A DNA stretch of 64,000 nt. Origin: Bacteroidia bacterium. Lineage in GTDB: Bacteria > Bacteroidota > Bacteroidia > J057. The stretch covers positions 372,001-436,000 of the forward strand of contig JALEFZ010000055.1 of the NCBI GenBank assembly GCA_022760475.1. The letters run 5' to 3'. How positions within the stretch are numbered: position 1 is the first letter of the stretch; every line of letters begins with the position of its first letter. Positions 9,963 through 18,181 of the stretch are shown piece by piece. The notes below the pieces were generated by a model. The model worked only from the letters and a program-made list of their open reading frames with translations, searched no databases and was not told the origin of the DNA. The position numbers and the translations under genes were made by a program.

Positions 9963-10280
9963 TTATTTGCGGTTATTACGTGGTGGACGTTCCCCCCTTT
10001 CAGGTTTGGGTGCCTTGGCAAACTCTTCTTTGGTGATGAGACCATCTTCATTCAGGTCAATTTTGACAAACTCTCTTTGTAAAGGTCCTTGTACCTCACT
10101 TTTGGAAAGCATTCCGTCTTTGTTTGCATCCATTTTATCCAATAACTGCTCGAAGCTCGGTGGACGATCTGGTTGGCCTTGCTTTCCCCGGCTTTCGGTA
10201 GGCTGATTTTTCTGTGAAGTACAGGCCAGCATTATCAAGGCGATGCCTGAAAGGGCAATTTTCTGCAATGTCTTGCTCAT
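9963..10280 (-). CDS. EF-hand lipoprotein, 105 aa
   Basis: The signal peptide ends in a lipobox (Leu-Met-Leu-Ala-Cys20). Two EF-hand-type calcium loops follow. The first is Asp-Ala-Asn-Lys-Asp-Gly-Met-Leu-Ser-Lys-Ser-Glu (about residues 51-62); the second is Asp-Leu-Asn-Glu-Asp-Gly-Leu-Ile-Thr-Lys-Glu-Glu (about 74-85). Both have the Asp-x-Asn/Asp-x-Asp-Gly-x-(Ile/Leu)-x-x-x-Glu pattern. The tail is Pro/Arg-rich and disordered. Such small EF-hand lipoproteins are common in Bacteroidota and bind Ca2+; no specific role is known. It is divergent from the outer-membrane receptor gene at 10499. Confidence 0.85.
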   Translation of the reverse strand: MSKTLQKIALSGIALIMLACTSQKNQPTESRGKQGQPDRPPSFEQLLDKMDANKDGMLSKSEVQGPLQREFVKIDLNEDGLITKEEFAKAPKPERGERPPRNNRK

Positions 10281-10498: not shown

Positions 10499-12922
10499 AT
10501 GTGGAAATACTCCTTTATTTTTTTCCTCCTGCTTCTTTTGGGGTTTGGGAAACTGATGGCTCAGCAAGGCGCAAGCATTTCCTTTCAACTCTTTGATACT
10601 GAAAGCCGAGAGCCTCTGGAGGCTGGGACAGTTAGGATCTTTCGTCTTCCTGATAGCAGCCTGCTGGCTGGCGTATTGACAGATTCGTCAGGTAATGGAG
10701 CTTTCTACGGCTTATCGAATGGGGAATATCAAATTGAAGCTTCATTCATAGGCTATGAAAGCCAAAAAAAGCAGATCTTGGTGGGGCGGCTGAACAAGTT
10801 TTATGATCTGGGTAAATGGTATTTAATTCCTTCGGGGGCAGAATTGGGCGAGATCAATATAGAAGGGCAAAAGAGCTTGGCTTCGACTTCGTTGGACCGG
10901 AAGAGCTTTACTTTGGACGAAAACATCTCCCAGGCGGGCTCCTCTACGCTGGATGCCATGCGAAATCTTCCAGGGATCACCGTTGATGCAGAAGGTAAAG
11001 TATTGCTAAGGGGCAGTGATCAGGTAGCTATTTTGATAGATGGAAAACAGTCTAGCCTGACAGGTTTCGGTAACCAGCAGGGCTTGGAGAATATCCCCGC
11101 CTCCAATATCGAACGGATAGAGATCATCAATAATCCCTCAGCAAAGTATGACGCATCCGGGATGGCAGGGATCATCAATATTGTCTACAAAACAGAAAAG
11201 GAAGAAGGGCTGAAAGTTGATTTGGGGTTTACTTATGGGCTCGGAGAGTTGACCACCCGCCGAGAAGATTTGCCTACAGAATTGGGCCGCTTTTCCCTCA
11301 ATCCCAAATACCTCCCCAGCCTCAGATTGAATTATATCAAGTCAAATTGGAATGCTTTTTTGAGGGCTGAAGTTTTGAGGCAAAAAAAATTGCCCAACAA
11401 TGAATTCAATATTCGTAGCTACGAAGACGGGAGGATCATTGCTTCACAGGTTCCAGAAAACCGGACTCAAACCCAATATATTGTCAATGCAGGTTTTGAT
11501 TGGCAGATGAATGGTAGCAATCGACTGGGTTTTTCTGCCCTCATGGATTATGAAAATCATGTAGATACTGCCCAAGTCCCTTATATCAACCTACTGAGCG
11601 ATGCCAGAAACAGGTATTGGCATTGGTCAGAAAGAGAGACCACTGGCTATTTGAATTTTCAATCTACCTATGAGCATCAGTTTCGCCAAGCTGGCCATAA
11701 GTTGGAGACTTCCCTCCAATATACCCGTGGCATCGAAGATGAGCAATATTTCCTAACAGACAGCTCTGAGTTTCGCCAGGGGCAGGATACCACCCATATC
11801 ATCGCGGTAGAGCATACAGGCGTATTCCTCCTCAATTATACCAAGCCTCTGAGCAGTGGCCGTTTGGAGGCAGGGAGTAAGATTCAACTGCGCCGCATTC
11901 CAATTACCTACGAAATAGGCCAGGGAGAAGCCTCCGTCCTTTATCCTGAGGTGGGCAATTCTTCTCGATGGGGAGAAAGCGTCTATGCGGCTTACCTGAA
12001 TTACATTTGGGAGAAAAAACGCTATGAAGTTGAAGCGGGCTTGAGGGCTGAACAGACCTTTGTATTTTATGACCTGGATAGCACCAATATTTATTACCCT
12101 CAAAACGATGCCTACCAATATTTTGAATTGTATCCCAATGTACGTTTTACCCTCAAACTTCATCCAAGGCATGGGATCTCTGTATTTTACAATCGAAGGG
12201 TGGATCGTCCAGGAGAACCTGAATTAAGGGTATTTCCCAAGTTTGACGATCCGGAACTCCTGAAAGTTGGCAACCCATATTTGAGGCCTCAGTTTACGCA
12301 GACCTTTGAACTGGCTTATCGATTCAGTTGGGAGAAGGGTTCTCTCTATTTTTCGGGCTACCATAGGTTGATTAACAATCCCTTTACTCGCGTATACAGC
12401 ATTGATACCACAAGCACTCAGTTTGATATCGTAAACCGGATCTATCAAAACGTAGGGCGTGGTTCTCAAACAGGGATTGAAGTGCTTGTCTCGCAGCAGG
12501 TCAGCAACTCATGGAAGCTCAGTGCAAGTTTTAACCTGTATCAAAATACCATTCAGGCGTTTTCGGGAGAATTGTTGTTCCCATATGTCCGGCCATTTTC
12601 CATTCCCAATACCCAAAGCACCACCTGGGATGTAAAAATCAACAATCAATTTGAGCTTTCGCAAAGATGGCAGCTTCAATTGACGGGCTTGTACTATGCC
12701 CCATTCAATATTCCACAAGGGCGGCAGCTATCAAGGGCTTCAATAGATTTGGGCGTGAAACGAGTTTTATGGGAAGGTAAGGGCGAAATCTTGCTTTCTG
12801 TAACCGACATGTTCAATCAGTTTGGTATTCGTCAGGAGATTGTGGGGCTAGGTTTTACAAATGAGTATGAAAACTTATATGAGACACAGGTTTTCAGGCT
12901 TGGGTTCCGTTATAAGTTTTAA
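10499..12922 (+). CDS. Outer membrane beta-barrel (TonB-receptor-like) protein, 807 aa
   Basis: The signal peptide covers residues 1-22. Residues about 25-110 form a carboxypeptidase-like regulatory domain (Ala-Gly-Thr-Val-Arg-Ile-Phe; Asp-Ser-Ser-Gly-Asn-Gly; Ala-Ser-Phe-Ile-Gly-Tyr). A plug-like region follows at about 130-240 with 'DAMRNLPGITVDAEGKVLLR' and Asp-Gly-Lys, Glu-Arg-Ile-Glu-Ile-Ile-Asn-Asn-Pro-Ser-Ala-Lys-Tyr-Asp, Gly-Ile-Ile-Asn-Ile-Val. The rest is a beta-barrel ending Phe-Arg-Leu-Gly-Phe-Arg-Tyr-Lys-Phe, with a terminal aromatic as expected for barrel insertion. The family (outer membrane beta-barrel family, OMP_b-brl_3 type) is frequent in Bacteroidota and does not necessarily have a SusD partner; none is present here. 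The ligand is unknown. Confidence 0.9.
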   Translation: MWKYSFIFFLLLLLGFGKLMAQQGASISFQLFDTESREPLEAGTVRIFRLPDSSLLAGVLTDSSGNGAFYGLSNGEYQIEASFIGYESQKKQILVGRLNKFYDLGKWYLIPSGAELGEINIEGQKSLASTSLDRKSFTLDENISQAGSSTLDAMRNLPGITVDAEGKVLLRGSDQVAILIDGKQSSLTGFGNQQGLENIPASNIERIEIINNPSAKYDASGMAGIINIVYKTEKEEGLKVDLGFTYGLGELTTRREDLPTELGRFSLNPKYLPSLRLNYIKSNWNAFLRAEVLRQKKLPNNEFNIRSYEDGRIIASQVPENRTQTQYIVNAGFDWQMNGSNRLGFSALMDYENHVDTAQVPYINLLSDARNRYWHWSERETTGYLNFQSTYEHQFRQAGHKLETSLQYTRGIEDEQYFLTDSSEFRQGQDTTHIIAVEHTGVFLLNYTKPLSSGRLEAGSKIQLRRIPITYEIGQGEASVLYPEVGNSSRWGESVYAAYLNYIWEKKRYEVEAGLRAEQTFVFYDLDSTNIYYPQNDAYQYFELYPNVRFTLKLHPRHGISVFYNRRVDRPGEPELRVFPKFDDPELLKVGNPYLRPQFTQTFELAYRFSWEKGSLYFSGYHRLINNPFTRVYSIDTTSTQFDIVNRIYQNVGRGSQTGIEVLVSQQVSNSWKLSASFNLYQNTIQAFSGELLFPYVRPFSIPNTQSTTWDVKINNQFELSQRWQLQLTGLYYAPFNIPQGRQLSRASIDLGVKRVLWEGKGEILLSVTDMFNQFGIRQEIVGLGFTNEYENLYETQVFRLGFRYKF

Positions 12923-13058
12923 TTGGCTCCTATTGCTTGATAAATGGGACTAGTTTGTTTTTTACTGATTTTGACGGAGATGGGAGTTTTTCGCTAAGCC
13001 CTGGGGATTAAAAAAATGTATCAACAGTGAATGGGCAAAGTTTGCACTTTCTGTCCCA

Positions 13059-14045
13059 TTAAGGAAGCTGATCTTTGGCGAGAAGGTGCTGAACAAAAAT
13101 ATTTTTCAAATCCTCCTTCTGCAATTTCTTCCCAATGATTACCACTTTGCTGATTTTAGGCTCATCTTCTGGCCAGACAAGGCCATCAGTTAGAACAAAG
13201 GAGTTATAAACTGATTGGAGTATTATTTGGACCGGGTAGTCATGTGCATTTAGAATTGCTTTGATTCTGTAGATCTGATGGCGGCTGTTGTTCAGCAATT
13301 TCATCAAATCCCTGGCGAGGCCTCGTACATTGAGTGGCTGATCAAAGGTAAAACTAAAGGTGCTGATGCCATGATTGTTGGCCTGCTTTTCTTCGGTAAT
13401 GTGGTGGTATTGTTCTACAGCTCCTGCTCCTTCAAAATGATTCACTGATTTTAGTTTGTCTACAGGAAATCTTCCATGTTCAGCCTTCCAAACTTTGGCT
13501 TGGGGATTGATTTCACTTAGAACAGTTTCGAGCTTTGCCAGATCTGTTTCTTCAAGGGTATCAATTTTATTTACCAATAAGGCATCTGCAAAAGCCACTT
13601 GTCTTTTTGCTTCAGCTGCCTGTGTCAGCCAATGCTCAAAATTTCCTGCGTCTACCAGACATAGAATGCTTTGTAGCTTGAAATGCTGCTCCAGGTAGCT
13701 CCTGGATAAGAATGGCAGGGCTAAAGATTCCGGATCTGCAACCCCTGTGGTCTCTATCACCAGGAGGTCGAAGGTATCTCTTTGTCTGCTAAGGGTTTCT
13801 AACAACTCGATCAACTCGTCATGCAAAGAACAGCAAAGACATCCCGCAGTTAGAGGGACTGGTGTAATATCGGTCCCTACCAACCACTGACTATCAAGAT
13901 TCTCTGCCCCAACTTCATTTTCTATGACCATGATCCGCTCATCAGGAGTATGTTGAATCCAGTGATTGAGGAAGCTGGTTTTTCCGGCACCCAAAAAACC
14001 GGTTACGATGAATACAGGAGTTGGTGATGAGGCCATTGAAAGCAA
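13059..14045 (-). CDS. COG0523 (CobW/YjiA/ZNG1-type) metal-chaperone GTPase, 328 aa
   Basis: The N-terminus has the Walker A sequence GFLGAGKT (16-23) and the family's metal motif Cys-Leu-Cys-Cys (69-72, a CxCC site). A Glu-Thr-Thr-Gly-x-Ala-Asp-Pro switch follows, then Asn-Lys-Ile-Asp for guanine recognition, and a CobW C-terminal domain (about 225-320). These GTPases deliver metals, most often zinc, to client proteins. Zinc is favoured by the neighbours: DUF1826, a His-rich lipoprotein and a Cys-motif secreted protein lie upstream on the same strand. An alternative start is Met4 (14036). It is the last gene of the run, 36 bp after DUF1826. Confidence 0.88.
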   Translation of the reverse strand: MLSMASSPTPVFIVTGFLGAGKTSFLNHWIQHTPDERIMVIENEVGAENLDSQWLVGTDITPVPLTAGCLCCSLHDELIELLETLSRQRDTFDLLVIETTGVADPESLALPFLSRSYLEQHFKLQSILCLVDAGNFEHWLTQAAEAKRQVAFADALLVNKIDTLEETDLAKLETVLSEINPQAKVWKAEHGRFPVDKLKSVNHFEGAGAVEQYHHITEEKQANNHGISTFSFTFDQPLNVRGLARDLMKLLNNSRHQIYRIKAILNAHDYPVQIILQSVYNSFVLTDGLVWPEDEPKISKVVIIGKKLQKEDLKNIFVQHLLAKDQLP

Positions 14046-14081
14046 TAATTTTAAAGGGACAAAAAGTAGAGGTTTTTGGTT

Positions 14082-14747
14082 TTACCAAGCGAGTTGGCTA
14101 TCCAGTCGCAGCAAGACACGAATGGCTCCAGCTTCTCCAATGCTTGGACTTCGGTGTAAAACGGCAGGGCCATCATTGGAATCATACATGGCTCCCTTCA
14201 AAATTCCTATTTCAGAAGGAGCAAATTGGCGTACTTTACTCAGATCGCTAACCCTCGCTTCATTGCTAGGTTCCCTGATGTTGTCCCAATTGACGTATTG
14301 ATCTGGTACCCAAAGGGTACCCTGTCCTATGTAGGTACATAACAACCTAAGTTCGATGGCATCTGTATGAAACAGCTTGCACATATCATTTTGGATGAAG
14401 GCAAATGAGGTTTGGAGCCTGGGAGATGAGGCAAGGCCTGCAAAAGAGCTTGCCAATTCGCCTACGTCTGAACATAAACGTTCAAAACCTTCTTCCTGTC
14501 CCTTGGAATAAGGGGCAAGGTGGTCTCTCAGCCGATTTTCTACCTGGGTAGCTAATAAACTGTCCCTGAATAAAGTTGGTAATGACTCCCTCTTTGTCAA
14601 TGACTCCAGGAATTCTGTGATGCGCTGGTCTTGTGGGCGAGGCCAATGAACAATGTTATGTTGAGGCTCACGAATGGCTGTCATTTCAGCCCAATTGTTA
14701 CAGAGTAGGTCTCTGGTTGTATGTGAGGAAGGAGTTATTGATTTCAT
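14082..14747 (-). CDS. DUF1826 domain-containing protein, 221 aa
   Basis: Recognised from the core 'CKLFHTDAIELRLLCTYIG' followed by Gly-Thr-Leu-Trp-Val-Pro (about 127-155), and from the late Leu-His-Arg-Ser-Pro near 197-201. The His-x-Asp followed about 70 residues later by His and Arg resembles the metal-binding triad of cupin-fold oxygenases; that reading is inference, and the catalytic role of DUF1826 is not established. There is no signal peptide, so it is cytoplasmic. DUF1826 genes commonly sit beside COG0523 GTPases in putative zinc-starvation loci, as here. The gap to the next upstream gene is 92 bp. Confidence 0.8.
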   Translation of the reverse strand: MKSITPSSHTTRDLLCNNWAEMTAIREPQHNIVHWPRPQDQRITEFLESLTKRESLPTLFRDSLLATQVENRLRDHLAPYSKGQEEGFERLCSDVGELASSFAGLASSPRLQTSFAFIQNDMCKLFHTDAIELRLLCTYIGQGTLWVPDQYVNWDNIREPSNEARVSDLSKVRQFAPSEIGILKGAMYDSNDGPAVLHRSPSIGEAGAIRVLLRLDSQLAW

Positions 14748-14839
14748 TTTAATTCAAAGTATTGTTTGAAAAGCACTAAACTTCAACGAGGCCTTTGGAA
14801 AGGCCATTTAAAATTGGAATTATCAATAGCTGGCTGGGT

Positions 14840-15268
14840 TTATTTTACTACTTCTGCCTGTTCGAGCAGGTATATCAAACCATCTCCACTTGGATTGAGG
14901 CGTAATTTACCTTTGAGTGTGACTCGTTGATCCAGCTTAAATTGCTGACCATCTTTGAGAAACCAAATTTCGATTACAGACTCCAGACCTGCTCCCCCAC
15001 AGAAAAAACAGGCCGAATAAGGATATCGAGATAGGGCATAGGCTTCACCTTTCAGGTCGATGGGAAGCATGTAACCACTGATTTCAATTCGCTTATTTTC
15101 CAGACTCTTGATCCTTTTGCTGAACCTTGGACGATCTACCAGGTAACCCGTACTCAAGTCCATTCCTCGGGAAAAACGAACCTCACTAAGCTGCACCCAG
15201 TTTACAGGAGTCTGCGCTATGAGGTTATTTGCAAAAAGTCCAAGAATACACAACAACAAATACTTCAT
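14840..15268 (-). CDS. Secreted OB-fold-like protein with Cys-Phe-Phe-Cys motif (DUF3299-like), 142 aa
   Basis: The Sec signal peptide ends near Ala-Gln (residue 19). The mature protein has Ile-Ser-Gly-Tyr-Met-Leu-Pro-Ile-Asp near 62-70 and Ser-Ala-Cys-Phe-Phe-Cys-Gly-Gly-Ala-Gly near 83-92. The C-terminal half looks like a small beta-barrel (Val-Thr-Leu-Lys-Gly-Lys-Leu-Arg-Leu). The 'Gly-Tyr-x-(Leu/Ile)-Pro ... Cys-x-x-Cys' arrangement resembles DUF3299-type periplasmic proteins. The Cys pair could bind zinc. Only 3 bp separate it from the His-rich lipoprotein gene, so they are co-transcribed. A metal-handling role is inferred from context. Confidence 0.6.
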   Translation of the reverse strand: MKYLLLCILGLFANNLIAQTPVNWVQLSEVRFSRGMDLSTGYLVDRPRFSKRIKSLENKRIEISGYMLPIDLKGEAYALSRYPYSACFFCGGAGLESVIEIWFLKDGQQFKLDQRVTLKGKLRLNPSGDGLIYLLEQAEVVK

Positions 15269-15271
15269 GTT

Positions 15272-15721
15272 CTAGTCATTTAATGAGGCAGTATTGGGAT
15301 ACTTTACTGCTAATTGACGAAATTCATCAAGTAGACGTTGCGCCTCATCCACCAAAGCCTGTTGGAGCTTAAGGATTTCTGACGGAGGCAAGTCTTTAAG
15401 ATTAGTTGAAGCATGGTCATGGTGGTGGTCATGGTCATGGCCTTCATGATCGTGTCCTTCTTCATGCTCATGCTCAAAGCCTGGTACTTCAACTACGCTT
15501 TCTTCCCAATTGGTACTGGCCTTCTTGAGCTCAGTCAATTTTTGTTGTCCTTCTGCACTAAGGCTTTGGGGATCCAAGGCTGTAAGCTCATTCTCCAAAG
15601 AATCGTGCTTTTGAATAGCGATCTCATGGAGTTCGAAAGCCTGCTTAAGTTGTGGGTCAGGCTCACCACTTTTGCAAGCAATAAACAAACACAAAAGGAC
15701 TGCAGGAAAGTAATACTTCAT
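15272..15721 (-). CDS. His-rich metal-binding lipoprotein, 149 aa
   Basis: The signal peptide ends in a lipobox at Cys16 (Leu-Phe-Ile-Ala-Cys). A helical, charged mature region contains a striking His/Asp/Glu/Gly tract (about residues 82-103), with ten or more His in about 20 positions. This is the kind of cluster that buffers Zn2+ or Ni2+ in periplasmic and surface proteins. The flanking helices contain Leu-x-x-Leu-Asp-Pro and Glu-Ile-Leu-Lys-Leu-Gln-Gln. It is first in the putative zinc operon, with a Fur-like inverted repeat 23-37 bp before its ATG. The metal is inferred, not seen. Confidence 0.8.
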   Translation of the reverse strand: MKYYFPAVLLCLFIACKSGEPDPQLKQAFELHEIAIQKHDSLENELTALDPQSLSAEGQQKLTELKKASTNWEESVVEVPGFEHEHEEGHDHEGHDHDHHHDHASTNLKDLPPSEILKLQQALVDEAQRLLDEFRQLAVKYPNTASLND

Positions 15722-15743
15722 AAGACGAAATAAGAGTTAAGCA

Positions 15744-15758
15744 AAATAATTATTATTG
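15744..15758 (-). promoter_or_regulatory. Fur-family-like 7-1-7 inverted repeat (candidate Zur box)
   Basis: AAATAATTATTATTG has arms that match at 6 of 7 positions around one central base, and it contains the core ATAAT-N-ATTAT seen in Fur/Zur boxes. It lies 23-37 bp before the first gene of the putative zinc operon. It is AT-rich, so chance is a real alternative. Confidence 0.4.
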
Positions 15759-15809
15759 AATAGGCTATCAGTCGTCTAATTACCTAAGCCTCAAAATCTT
15801 GATTAGAAC

Positions 15810-16307
15810 TTAGTTTAAACTCAATTTTTCCCTAAAGAATACCTCTGAATGGATGGGTTGAAACACATCTTGTTGCCTGTGATAAATCTTTCCCAAAATC
15901 CTGAGCTCACCATCAAACCAGTTGTCAAGATTGGGTTGTAATTCACTGATTCTCATGTTTAAATAATATGAAAGGAGAAAAATAGATAAATCACAGCTAT
16001 TCAATACCTCCTTAAAACGTTTGGCCTGGCTTGAGAGGTCGCTATAAAGCTTGTGTAAACTCCATATATGAGGGAATTTCTGGTTCTGAAATGCATCTAA
16101 AACAATTTGATTATCATCCGAAAGGATAAAAGAGATATTTCTGATGTCATTGACTGTTAGGAACCCTTTGATCTCCAGTAGGATATCTCTATCCAGACTC
16201 AAAGAATTGCCCAAAGAAGTAAAAAAGTAATGTTTCCCTTTCATTTGCCGAGTGATGGTGGACTCGAGGTAATCAGTAGGGCAAATGAAGTTTAGCTGCC
16301 TTGGCAT
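15810..16307 (-). CDS. Uncharacterised 165-aa protein linked to the carbonic anhydrase gene
   Basis: No family recognised. It opens Met-Pro-Arg-Gln-Leu-Asn-Phe-Ile-Cys-Pro-Thr-Asp-Tyr-Leu-Glu and has 'HYFFTSLGNSLSLDR' near 26-40, then Ile-Ser-Phe-Ile-Leu-Ser-Asp-Asp-Asn-Gln-Ile-Val-Leu-Asp-Ala near 60-72. There is no signal peptide and only moderately hydrophobic helices, so it is probably cytoplasmic. The Ser-Asp-Asp-Asn-Gln segment after a beta-strand has the look of a Rossmann-type or carbonic-anhydrase-like core, but I cannot support more. It begins 17 bp after the LCIB-type carbonic anhydrase gene on the same strand and probably shares its transcript, so a role in inorganic-carbon handling is plausible. 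Confidence 0.65.
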   Translation of the reverse strand: MPRQLNFICPTDYLESTITRQMKGKHYFFTSLGNSLSLDRDILLEIKGFLTVNDIRNISFILSDDNQIVLDAFQNQKFPHIWSLHKLYSDLSSQAKRFKEVLNSCDLSIFLLSYYLNMRISELQPNLDNWFDGELRILGKIYHRQQDVFQPIHSEVFFREKLSLN

Positions 16308-16324
16308 CAGAAATATCTCTATGA

Positions 16325-17038
16325 TTAAAGATTCCTCACATCTACTACTTCGAAGTTTCTGGCGTCAAAGTAGTCATCCAGACCATAATCCGTGTTGATA
16401 ATGATTCCTCCCAGGAGAACAACTGTGTCGACTTTGAATTCATCTTTACATGTCTTCAGGTGATCGTGAATCTTTTTGTCAATGATTTCATAGGTTGCTT
16501 CTGTAATGGCCTGTGCAGGATTTTTGCTCCCGAGAATCTGATCCCTGTAAGGAATTAAAGACTCTTCCAACTTCATTTGCTGGTAGTCATCCTCATTTAT
16601 TACAGGCTTGTAGTTGCTGTCCCCGAATCTGCTCAATGCCAGCATCAAGGCACCACAAGAGTTTCCGGTTTGTTCCTGGCGTGGCCTGTACATTTTACCA
16701 AGGTCTCCTTCAAGGGTGACTCCAATGTGCGGACCGTAGAAAATGAATGCACTTCCTTCATCAGGAATGTGGTGGGCAAAGGCCGTCATCCCCGTTTGAC
16801 CAGCGAAGGGTAAGCCTCCTAAACCACCCATGATAAATGGACCAAATAGCACATTGAAAAAGGTTGTGGAAGGAACATTGATGTCATCTGAACATACCGA
16901 AGTCGCCATCAGTACCTTGGAAATATTGATTTTGTGGTCAATTTGCATCTTGCCGAGGTAATGAATAGAAGTGTCCTTCGCATCCATGGCATTGGGGAAA
17001 AAGCCCTTTACAACCTGATCGAATTTTCTTTGTAGCAT
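16325..17038 (-). CDS. LCIB-type (theta/beta-like) carbonic anhydrase, 237 aa
   Basis: It resembles the LCIB_C_CA family, named from Chlamydomonas LCIB/LCIC. Matching features are 'ATSVCSDDIN' (Cys49, Asp51, Asp52), Gly-Gln-Thr-Gly-Met-Thr-Ala-Phe-Ala-His-His near 80-90, Phe-Tyr-Gly-Pro-His104-Ile-Gly, and Ser-Cys128-Gly-Ala. Cys49, His104 and Cys128 fit the three zinc ligands, with Asp51 and Arg118 or Arg120 as the usual Asp/Arg pair. Length is close to bacterial members (about 220-250 aa). Expected activity is interconversion of CO2 and bicarbonate in the cytoplasm. It is followed by the 165-aa gene. Its promoter overlaps a perfect 15-bp palindrome, so it looks specifically regulated. Confidence 0.85.
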   Translation of the reverse strand: MLQRKFDQVVKGFFPNAMDAKDTSIHYLGKMQIDHKINISKVLMATSVCSDDINVPSTTFFNVLFGPFIMGGLGGLPFAGQTGMTAFAHHIPDEGSAFIFYGPHIGVTLEGDLGKMYRPRQEQTGNSCGALMLALSRFGDSNYKPVINEDDYQQMKLEESLIPYRDQILGSKNPAQAITEATYEIIDKKIHDHLKTCKDEFKVDTVVLLGGIIINTDYGLDDYFDARNFEVVDVRNL

Positions 17039-17089
17039 GACAGTAGGTTATTTTTAAATATGCGGGTAAGTAGATCTGTTTGTTCGTTG

Positions 17090-17119
17090 TAAATATAATA
17101 TAAAGGACTTCAATTGCAA
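17090..17119 (-). promoter_or_regulatory. Candidate promoter of the carbonic anhydrase operon
   Basis: On the minus strand, TTG (17119-17117), a 19-bp spacer and TATATTTA (17097-17090) fit the Bacteroidota consensus except for the last base of the -7 box. The ATG at 17038 is about 45 bp beyond the expected start of transcription. Confidence 0.45.
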
Positions 17120-17129
17120 CATTGTTGCA
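17115..17129. promoter_or_regulatory. Perfect 15-bp palindrome (operator candidate)
   Basis: TGCAACATTGTTGCA is a perfect 7-1-7 inverted repeat. It covers the -33 TTG of the candidate carbonic anhydrase promoter, a position suited to repression. The 7-1-7 geometry is typical of Fur-family sites, but the regulator is not known. Confidence 0.5.
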
Positions 17130-17416
17130 TTATGCTTTGCCTGTAGATCTTTTTTTCTAGAAATTTGGTGTTTTAAAATCCCAACTCATTATTGCTACCA
17201 GAGGTTTTGGCTGAGGTATAAGTATCCTTCGTGGTTCATCTTTCAGATTCGTTTCTCAAGAGGAAAACTTCGTTTTGGATGTGTTCGTGCTGGCAGCACG
17301 TAAAATAGAAGTTCTACTTGTTTTGCTGGGCGACTTTGAAGCATCTTTGCCAAGCCTACTGCTCACTGACTTTGATAGCCTTACTAATTGGAAACTTGAA
17401 TTAATTAATTGTTCAA
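17130..17416. other. Intergenic region between divergent carbonic anhydrase and phosphoesterase genes
   Basis: No open frame or RNA gene seen. A weak promoter for the phosphoesterase may be TTG at about 17317-17319 with CATCTTTG near 17340-17347 (7 of 8 to the -7 box). No hairpin of note. Confidence 0.4.
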
Positions 17417-18181
17417 ATGAAAATAGCTCTTTTTAGCGATGTGCATGGAAATATTCCAGCTTTAATGGCTGTGTTGGAGGACATGAAAAAGCAGCATGTG
17501 GATCAAATCTATTGTTTGGGAGATCTGGTGAGTTATGCTCCTTTTCCGAATGAGGTTGTGGAAGAAATCCGTAGGAGGTATATCCCGACCATTGCAGGAA
17601 ATCATGATGAAGCCATTGGCTTTGACCCTGAGGATGATGGCATTCGATATAAAATCAGTGAAGGGATGAAAAGTGGGGCTGTTTCGCGATTTCTTACCAA
17701 TCAGTTAATCTCCACAGAGAATCGAGCTTACCTCAAAGGCTTGCCCAGGCACATGCATATTGAATTCAGGCATGGGGAAGAGCAAATAAATCTGTTGTTG
17801 GTTCATGGGAGTCCCAGGAGGATCAATGAGTATCTTTTTGAAGCGCATGATGAGAAGGATTTGGTGGAATTAATGAGGAGTAGAAACGCCCACATCATGG
17901 CATTTGGGCATACCCATAAGCCTTTTCACCGAATCCTGAATGATGGAAAAGGAACCTTCTTACATGCAATCAACACAGGTTCAGTAGGCAAACCCAAGGA
18001 TGGAAATCCGGATGCCTGCTATGTCATTGTTGAACTAGGGGATGATGTAAGCTTGTTAAATCCTGAAGGGCTGAGGGTAGAATTCATTAGGGTTCCTTAT
18101 GACATAGAATCAGTTGCTAAGGCTATCGAGGAAGGTCAGTTTCCTGACGAATATGCTGATATGCTTAGGAAGGCTTATTAG
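17417..18181 (+). CDS. Calcineurin-like metallophosphoesterase, 254 aa
   Basis: All motifs of the family are present in order: Phe-Ser-Asp-Val-His-Gly-Asn (6-12), Leu-Gly-Asp-Leu-Val (35-39), Ala-Gly-Asn-His-Asp-Glu-Ala (60-66), His-Gly-Ser-Pro (about 136-139) and Phe-Gly-His-Thr-His (about 167-171), with Asn-Thr-Gly-Ser-Val-Gly after it. This is the YfcE/diadenosine-tetraphosphatase-like branch, a two-metal cytoplasmic phosphoesterase. The natural substrate cannot be told. It is monocistronic, with convergent TetR on the other side. Confidence 0.9.
   Translation: MKIALFSDVHGNIPALMAVLEDMKKQHVDQIYCLGDLVSYAPFPNEVVEEIRRRYIPTIAGNHDEAIGFDPEDDGIRYKISEGMKSGAVSRFLTNQLISTENRAYLKGLPRHMHIEFRHGEEQINLLLVHGSPRRINEYLFEAHDEKDLVELMRSRNAHIMAFGHTHKPFHRILNDGKGTFLHAINTGSVGKPKDGNPDACYVIVELGDDVSLLNPEGLRVEFIRVPYDIESVAKAIEEGQFPDEYADMLRKAY

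What the first reader, a model, noticed from the sequence alone, without database searches (positions are those of the whole stretch)
13059..15721. Four-gene zinc-type island
COG0523 GTPase, DUF1826, a Cys-x-x-Cys secreted protein and a lipoprotein with a dense His tract are in one minus-strand run. The mix of periplasmic capture proteins and a cytoplasmic metallochaperone suggests a coordinated zinc-scavenging route. The two secreted components are not part of well-known zinc regulons, to my knowledge.
Basis: partly seen in the sequence, partly recalled or inferred. Interest (0 to 1): 0.6.

Follow-up and report, generated by a model that had tools for sequence, protein, structure and literature searches.

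The report
Zinc-starvation operon in Bacteroidota bacteria
The four genes are the tail of a six-gene run, headed by two carbonic-anhydrase-like genes and a DNA switch site, that looks like one piece of a so far undescribed zinc-shortage programme shared by many Bacteroidota bacteria.

Summary
The four genes exist as described. They are the 3' part of a six-gene minus-strand run (17038 to 13059) that starts with an LCIB-class carbonic anhydrase gene and orf165, whose model has a beta-carbonic-anhydrase fold. A perfect inverted repeat, TGCAACAATGTTGCA, lies 76 nt upstream. It occurs exactly five times in the 6.86-Mb genome: before this run, a DUF5916 outer-membrane-type protein and a TonB-receptor run, and twice between a Fur-family gene and a CobW-MerC-CobW run. 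A one-mismatch copy precedes a MacB-type ABC operon ending in two CFFC paralogues. The same box core precedes DUF1826 runs of other genomes: 31 of 62 exact, against none for any of 179 permuted half-sites. The CFFC protein is a divergent relative of DUF3299 (ZrgE/PA4066 of Vibrio and Pseudomonas Zur operons), so it is not foreign to zinc regulons. The His-tract lipoprotein is a real, uncurated family. Best reading: a Zur-type metal-starvation regulon of Bacteroidota, a new variant of a known kind. Zinc itself, repressor binding and expression are inferred, not shown.

The parts
17115..17129 (.). Perfect 7-1-7 inverted repeat TGCAACA-N-TGTTGCA, candidate Zur-type operator, 76 nt upstream of the first gene
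   Evidence: 0 mismatches; five exact copies in the genome; core exact upstream of 31 of 62 DUF1826 operons, 0 for each of 179 permuted half-sites
16325..17038 (-). LCIB-class carbonic anhydrase gene, first gene of the run
   Evidence: PF18599 E 7.2e-50; solved relative 6kfs E 8.4e-35 with C-x-D, H and C positions kept
15810..16307 (-). orf165: beta-carbonic-anhydrase fold by model, His-x-x-Cys ligands apparently missing
   Evidence: Model pLDDT 70; Foldseek top 50 rows all beta-CAs; VIA Z 13.3, rmsd 3.7, 152 residues; homologues in 5 of 63 DUF1826 loci; alignment A5
15272..15721 (-). HisLP: lipoprotein with His-rich tract, uncurated conserved family
   Evidence: 11 homologues in DUF1826 loci, found also with the His tract masked; alignment A4
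14840..15268 (-). CFFC: secreted OB-fold protein, divergent relative of DUF3299 (ZrgE/PA4066)
   Evidence: Profile vs 4hsp E 1.5e-4; fold; 20 of 40 family members match PF11736 at E <= 0.1
14082..14747 (-). DUF1826 protein
   Evidence: PF08856 E 7.1e-42; COG0523 found in 46 of 63 DUF1826 loci
13059..14036 (-). COG0523 (CobW/YjiA-type) GTPase with CLCC motif, last gene of the run
   Evidence: PF02492 E 1.9e-45, CobW_C E 3.3e-13; closest solved chain YjiA 1nij E 4.2e-42

Best explanation
The run LCIB - orf165 - HisLP - CFFC - DUF1826 - COG0523 is one operon of a Zur-type metal-starvation regulon, most likely for zinc. Inferred: with enough zinc a Fur-family repressor (the gene beside two boxes at G000:C66) sits on TGCAACANTGTTGCA and blocks the promoter; when zinc is short it lets go. 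Shown by genome anatomy only: the other box sites of this genome precede a TonB-receptor run, a DUF5916 outer-membrane-type protein, a CobW-MerC-CobW run and a MacB-type ABC operon (ATPase, FtsX permease with a His-rich stretch, two CFFC proteins). Proposed division of labour, inferred: TonB and DUF5916 proteins bring metal across the outer membrane; the His-tract lipoprotein buffers it in the periplasm; the CFFC protein works with the ABC machine as DUF3299 does in ZrgABCDE; MerC-type or ZIP carriers let it in; the COG0523 GTPase with DUF1826 gives the scarce metal to priority enzymes, the LCIB carbonic anhydrase being the obvious client. Orf165, a carbonic-anhydrase fold that seems to lack two zinc ligands, is a partner subunit or a zinc-sparing stand-in.
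For: Box counts with controls: 5 exact in the genome, reversed pattern 0; 23 exact in 22 genomes of the order, reversed pattern 0; 31 of 62 DUF1826 operons exact, 179 permuted half-sites none. A Fur-family gene stands beside the boxes in the own genome, in G300 and in L058. The box precedes ABC-CFFC runs in L037, L131, L134, L142, L149. COG0523 and DUF1826 in Zur regulons of Proteobacteria are published, so are zrgE = DUF3299 and Zur-regulated carbonic anhydrases of other classes. LCIB and orf165 recur in DUF1826-CobW clusters.
Against: No expression, binding or metal data. The Fur-family protein could sense another metal. The gaps of 88, 92 and 45 nt could hold further promoters or terminators the scan does not see. 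Most LCIB genes of the phylum sample have no box. The window run itself holds no transporter. DUF1826 and CFFC also occur without the box or without each other.
Confidence: 0.72

Rival explanations
1. The regulon answers to another metal (cobalt, nickel, manganese or iron): the box binds a Fur-family sensor of that metal, and the secreted proteins and the MacB-type ABC handle or export that metal or a metallophore.
For: PA4063-PA4066, though Zur-controlled, has been assigned to export of pyochelin-cobalt (PMC11481552 passages). COG0523 includes cobalt chaperones. The box sequence alone does not name the metal.
Against: The set of partners is the one seen in published Zur regulons: COG0523, DUF1826, DUF3299-type with MacB-type ABC, carbonic anhydrase, TonB receptors. 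A ZIP-family gene (PF02535 E 1.1e-19) lies near a box in G308.
Confidence: 0.17
2. Two units side by side: LCIB-orf165 is a carbon-related pair with the box, and the reader's four genes form a separate unit with its own promoter that is not under the box.
For: The gap before the lipoprotein is 88 nt and could hold a promoter. LCIB families are known from CO2 metabolism (recalled), and 28 of 30 LCIB loci examined have no convincing box nearby.
Against: In other genomes the box stands directly before DUF1826, ABC-CFFC and CFFC-HisLP-CobW runs. LCIB or orf165 recur inside DUF1826-CobW clusters (8 of 63 loci hold one or both). No terminator-like site on the minus strand.
Confidence: 0.15
3. The unit is for metal detoxification or efflux: His-tract lipoprotein and MacB-type ABC sequester and expel excess metal.
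For: MacB-type ABC machines are exporters where studied (passage in PMC11481552). MerC is named after mercury resistance. His-rich lipoproteins also occur in resistance systems (recalled).
Against: COG0523 and DUF1826 belong to shortage responses where studied. The TonB receptors at the same boxes are import devices. The box-linked regulator is Fur-family, not MerR or ArsR.
Confidence: 0.07

Closest known systems
ZrgABCDE of Vibrio / PA4063-PA4066 of Pseudomonas aeruginosa (Zur-regulated)
   Same: MacB/FtsX-type permease and ATPase followed by a DUF3299-type OB-fold protein, with a His-rich secreted protein; own-genome permease finds the Phaeobacter copy of this layout
   Different: In the window the ABC pair is absent (it is on contig C89); the OB protein has the CFFC motif and fails Pfam's DUF3299 cut-off; the His-rich protein is an unrelated lipoprotein, not DUF2796
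Zur-regulated COG0523 clusters with DUF1826 (Haas et al. 2009, PMC2770081; Francisella, PMC5786701)
   Same: COG0523 GTPase and DUF1826 in one metal-starvation unit (passages)
   Different: Bacteroidota; a different operator; added CFFC, His-tract lipoprotein, LCIB and orf165
Carbonic anhydrases in Zur regulons (gamma-class in Proteobacteria; ytiB of Bacillus subtilis)
   Same: A carbonic anhydrase gene in a zinc-starvation regulon (PMC2770081 and PMC6103462 passages)
   Different: Here an LCIB-class enzyme that keeps its metal-site residues, beside a degenerate beta-CA fold

Membership tests
DUF3299 (PF11736; ZrgE/PA4066), for the CFFC protein | Window protein scores above Pfam's cut-off | tested here: not met
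   No Pfam match at E <= 1; genome scan with PF11736 gives only sub-threshold hits
DUF3299 (PF11736; ZrgE/PA4066), for the CFFC protein | Sequence relationship of the family to DUF3299 | tested here: met
   20 of 40 members match PF11736 at E <= 0.1, best 2.9e-10; profile hits 4hsp E 1.5e-4; hhalign with Phaeobacter DUF3299 E 1.2e-4, probability 55
DUF3299 (PF11736; ZrgE/PA4066), for the CFFC protein | OB fold of 4hsp | tested here: met
   Only Foldseek match at E <= 0.001 is 4hsp; VIA Z 9.4, rmsd 2.7, 100 residues, unrelated OB folds from 8.7
ZrgABCDE operon | MacB-type ABC genes next to the OB protein | tested here: not met
   Absent from the window run; present for CFFC paralogues in L037 of the same genome and in 17 of 32 phylum loci
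ZrgABCDE operon | DUF2796 His-rich protein (ZrgA) | tested here: not met
   The His-tract lipoprotein has no DUF2796 match
COG0523 | CobW nucleotide-binding and C-terminal domains, CxCC motif | tested here: met
   PF02492 and PF07683 above cut-off; GCLCC in the sequence
COG0523 | Zinc as the metal carried | not testable with these tools
   NCBIfam ZigA model far below its cut-off (124.7 of 600 bits), which does not exclude zinc
DUF1826 | Pfam match above cut-off | tested here: met
   PF08856 144 bits, cut-off 22
Zur regulon | Shared operator upstream of metal-acquisition genes with low background | tested here: met
Zur regulon | Fur-family regulator linked to the operator | tested here: met
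   PF01475 E 4.1e-9 for L140:5264-5653, next to two boxes
Zur regulon | Zinc-dependent binding and repression | not testable with these tools
   Needs EMSA and expression data
LCIB-class carbonic anhydrase | Domain and metal-site residues | tested here: met
   PF18599 169.8 bits; C-x-D, H and C aligned with 6kfs; that these bind the metal is recalled
Beta-carbonic anhydrase, for orf165 | Beta-CA fold | tested here: met
   model confidence only moderate (pLDDT 70)
Beta-carbonic anhydrase, for orf165 | Cys and His-x-x-Cys zinc ligands | tested here: not met
   Cys9 invariant, but no His-x-x-Cys after strand 3 in any of six members (position by strand order, by eye; motif recalled)

The most novel reading that the evidence does not exclude
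Bacteroidota own a distinct Zur regulon with its own operator (TGCAACANTGTTGCA) and its own parts: MerC-type carriers as inner-membrane zinc importers, TonB receptors with partner lipoproteins and DUF5916 proteins as the outer route, a His-tract lipoprotein and an OB-fold CFFC protein that hand zinc over in the periplasm, and a carbonic anhydrase pair (LCIB plus a beta-CA fold without its His-x-x-Cys) kept running by a dedicated COG0523-DUF1826 chaperone.
Probability: 0.4. Interest if true: 0.78.

Novelty: new variant of a known kind. Interest (0 to 1): 0.62.

Why it matters
In the searches listed here I found no description of a zinc-uptake operator or regulon for Bacteroidota, a major phylum of seas, soils and guts. 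A precise operator with very low background makes the regulon predictable from sequence. It gives a first functional setting to several families without a known role (CFFC, the His-tract lipoprotein, orf165, DUF1826). It also places an LCIB-class carbonic anhydrase under metal-starvation control, which makes the question of which enzyme a COG0523 chaperone serves directly testable.

Tried and rejected
An AT-rich 7-1-7 site just upstream of the lipoprotein gene looked Fur-like by eye; I dropped it once the TGCAACA box was found, and did not test it further. Membership of the window CFFC protein in Pfam DUF3299 was rejected, although the distant relationship stands. The His-tract lipoprotein as a homologue of DUF2796/ZrgA was rejected for lack of any match; its profile hits in the PDB are low-complexity, tag or designed-protein matches. 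DUF1826 against solved structures gave nothing meaningful, nor did orf165 by sequence. The box was not found convincingly at most LCIB genes, so LCIB is not generally part of this regulon. The one-mismatch site at C89:23027 lies inside a coding sequence and is taken as chance. Literature searches for a Bacteroidota Zur operator and for MerC with Zur showed none in their listings; only open-licence papers are held, and only the best-ranked rows were seen. The cyanobacterial ZepA paper and the ribosomal S4 paper did not bear on this.
Full report
What is there. Pfam supports the first two strongly. The other two have no curated match. Two more minus-strand genes stand directly upstream: orf165 (16307-15810) and a 237-aa LCIB-family carbonic anhydrase (17038-16325, PF18599 E 7.2e-50). 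The gaps between the six genes are 17, 88, 3, 92 and 45 nt (from the coordinates, with the COG0523 start at the ATG at 14036). No terminator-like site was found on the minus strand in 12900-17450. The genome has 6.86 Mb; that it is Bacteroidota is inferred from its relatives, two of whose contigs match named Bacteroidia contigs by length.

The box. Upstream regions of related operons showed a shared inverted repeat. TGCAACANTGTTGCA occurs once without mismatch in the window, at 17115-17129, 76 nt before the LCIB start; the two other matches have three mismatches. In the whole genome it occurs five times exactly: here, upstream of a DUF5916/CBM9 outer-membrane-type protein (C15), upstream of a run with a TonB receptor (C17), and twice between a Fur-family gene and a CobW-MerC-CobW run (C66). 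With one mismatch there are two more: upstream of the ABC-CFFC-CFFC operon on C89, and one inside a dehydrogenase-like coding sequence that I take as chance. With up to two mismatches there are 21 sites against 4 for the reversed pattern.

The box in relatives. In the 22 genomes of the order there are 23 exact sites in 10 genomes, against 0 for the reversed pattern. By my reading, 17 of the 23 precede genes of recognised type: DUF1826-CobW, Fur/CobW, ABC-CFFC, LCIB, TonB receptors, DUF5916. Five precede a 131-aa lipoprotein (G300, G306) and one an FAD oxidoreductase (G309). Upstream of 80 CFFC, ABC, CobW or DUF1826 operons, 10 have the core within one mismatch; so have 13 of 478 other upstream regions of the same loci, but 9 or more of those 13 share the very same sites as divergent partners (MerC, Fur-type genes).

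Named genomes. A scan of the genome-contig collection for DUF1826 gave 63 loci, mostly Bacteroidota (Saprospiraceae, Flavobacteriales, Cyclobacteriaceae, Cytophagales and others), with a few Acetobacter and other Proteobacteria; the Acetobacter loci show no box. Two of these contigs match the unnamed G298 and G308 by length, so those genomes appear twice in my material. In the 400 bp upstream of 62 DUF1826 operons (one locus had no called ORF) the core TGCAAC-N3-GTTGCA is exact in 31 and within one mismatch in 41; of 179 permutations of the half-site none has an exact match and the best has one match with one mismatch. Within the fetched flanks of the 63 loci, COG0523 is found in 46, CFFC in 20, MerC in 16, the His-tract lipoprotein in 11, a Fur-type gene in 11, the ABC permease in 6, LCIB in 5 and orf165 in 5. 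Flank lengths vary with the contig, so these are lower bounds.

The lipoprotein is a real family. A query with the whole His tract masked still finds all 11 lipoproteins, E 9e-12 to 6e-4, and four more in the order. Fourteen aligned members share the lipobox Cys, a VPG motif before the His tract and a conserved C-terminal stretch. In 8 of the 9 four-family loci CFFC is directly followed by the lipoprotein and then by CobW; in the window the lipoprotein comes first.

The CFFC protein. W24, G65, C87 and G120 are invariant in 40 aligned members. The own genome has six copies, and 34 of 296 Bacteroidota genomes have at least one. The profile's best hit in the PDB is 4hsp, PA4066 of Pseudomonas, E 1.5e-4, with the first Cys aligned. 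An AlphaFold2 model (pLDDT 93.5) has 4hsp as its only Foldseek match at E <= 0.001 and as the top VIA match (Z 9.4, rmsd 2.7, 100 residues), with generic OB folds from Z 8.7 down. Twenty of 40 members match DUF3299 at E <= 0.1, best 2.9e-10, but the window protein does not. CFFC genes sit within two genes of a MacB/FtsX-type permease in 17 of 32 phylum loci, 7 of 25 order loci and 1 of 5 own loci (permease and ATPase domains). The own-genome permease finds a Phaeobacter permease (E 9e-34) in the run Fur - DUF2796 - ATPase - permease - DUF3299. That is the gene set of zrgABCDE, in which zrgE is DUF3299 and zrgA DUF2796, strongly induced by zinc limitation in Vibrio parahaemolyticus (PMC9817125, passages), and of PA4063-PA4066 (PMC11481552 and PMC8561739, passages).

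The two carbonic-anhydrase-like genes. The LCIB protein aligns with solved LCIB-domain proteins (6kfs E 8.4e-35) with the C-x-D, H and C positions kept. Orf165 has no Pfam match, but the 50 best Foldseek rows of its model (pLDDT 70) are all beta-carbonic anhydrases, and VIA gives Z 13.3, rmsd 3.7 over 152 residues. Across six members Cys9 is invariant, but where beta-CAs have His-x-x-Cys after the third strand these have residues of the S-D-D-N-x kind (mapping by strand order, by eye; the motif is recalled). LCIB is directly followed by orf165 in L292 and L300, as in the window. Of 30 LCIB loci examined only the window's and one other (L236) have a convincing box nearby; LCIB is found in 31 of 296 Bacteroidota genomes.

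How it most likely works. Shown: gene order, families, folds, operator-like repeats and their placement. Inferred: that the Fur-family gene beside two boxes is the repressor, that its metal is zinc, and the division of labour given in the best explanation. Cobalt or another metal remains possible, since PA4064-PA4065 has been assigned to pyochelin-cobalt export while being Zur-controlled.

Known and new. COG0523 with DUF1826 under Zur is known (PMC2770081 and PMC5786701, passages), and so are Zur-regulated carbonic anhydrases of other classes (PMC2770081 and PMC6103462, passages). A link of COG0523 proteins with carbon-concentrating metabolism is published for Chlamydomonas (PMC13368412, passages), which is suggestive only. 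I saw no description of the box, of a Bacteroidota Zur regulon, of the lipoprotein family or of orf165 in the listings, a library without most subscription journals. RegPrecise and similar resources were not available.

Noticed in passing
G000:C66 (L140:5264-8500): Fur-family gene divergent from CobW-MerC-CobW with two perfect boxes between them; the MerC-type carrier (PF03203 E 1.5e-19) recurs near boxes and DUF1826 in 16 of 63 loci and might be a zinc importer.
   Followed up: partly
L180:5977-8253, L216:6010-8550, L044:8699-10933: DUF5916/CBM9 outer-membrane-type proteins recur at box sites or inside a box-headed DUF1826-CobW run.
   Followed up: partly
L208:5872-6264 and L210:6069-6464: A short lipoprotein without Pfam match behind three and two exact boxes in G300 and G306; the two look related by eye.
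   Followed up: no
window 14082-14747 (-): DUF1826: Cys, His-x-Asp, a later His and Arg residues are invariant in 8 aligned members; the pattern recalls a 2-His-1-carboxylate metal site (recalled, not tested).
   Followed up: no
L126 upstream of 7646: A short CobW-like coding fragment lies between the boxes and DUF1826 in G308, as if a CobW copy had decayed there (by eye).
   Followed up: no
window 9963-10280 (-): Small lipoprotein-like EF-hand protein (two EF-hand stretches).
   Followed up: no
L044:8181-15241 and L125:652-6028: DUF1826 or CobW share runs with an ABC-2 type transporter carrying DUF3526 permeases, a second transporter type in this neighbourhood.
   Followed up: no
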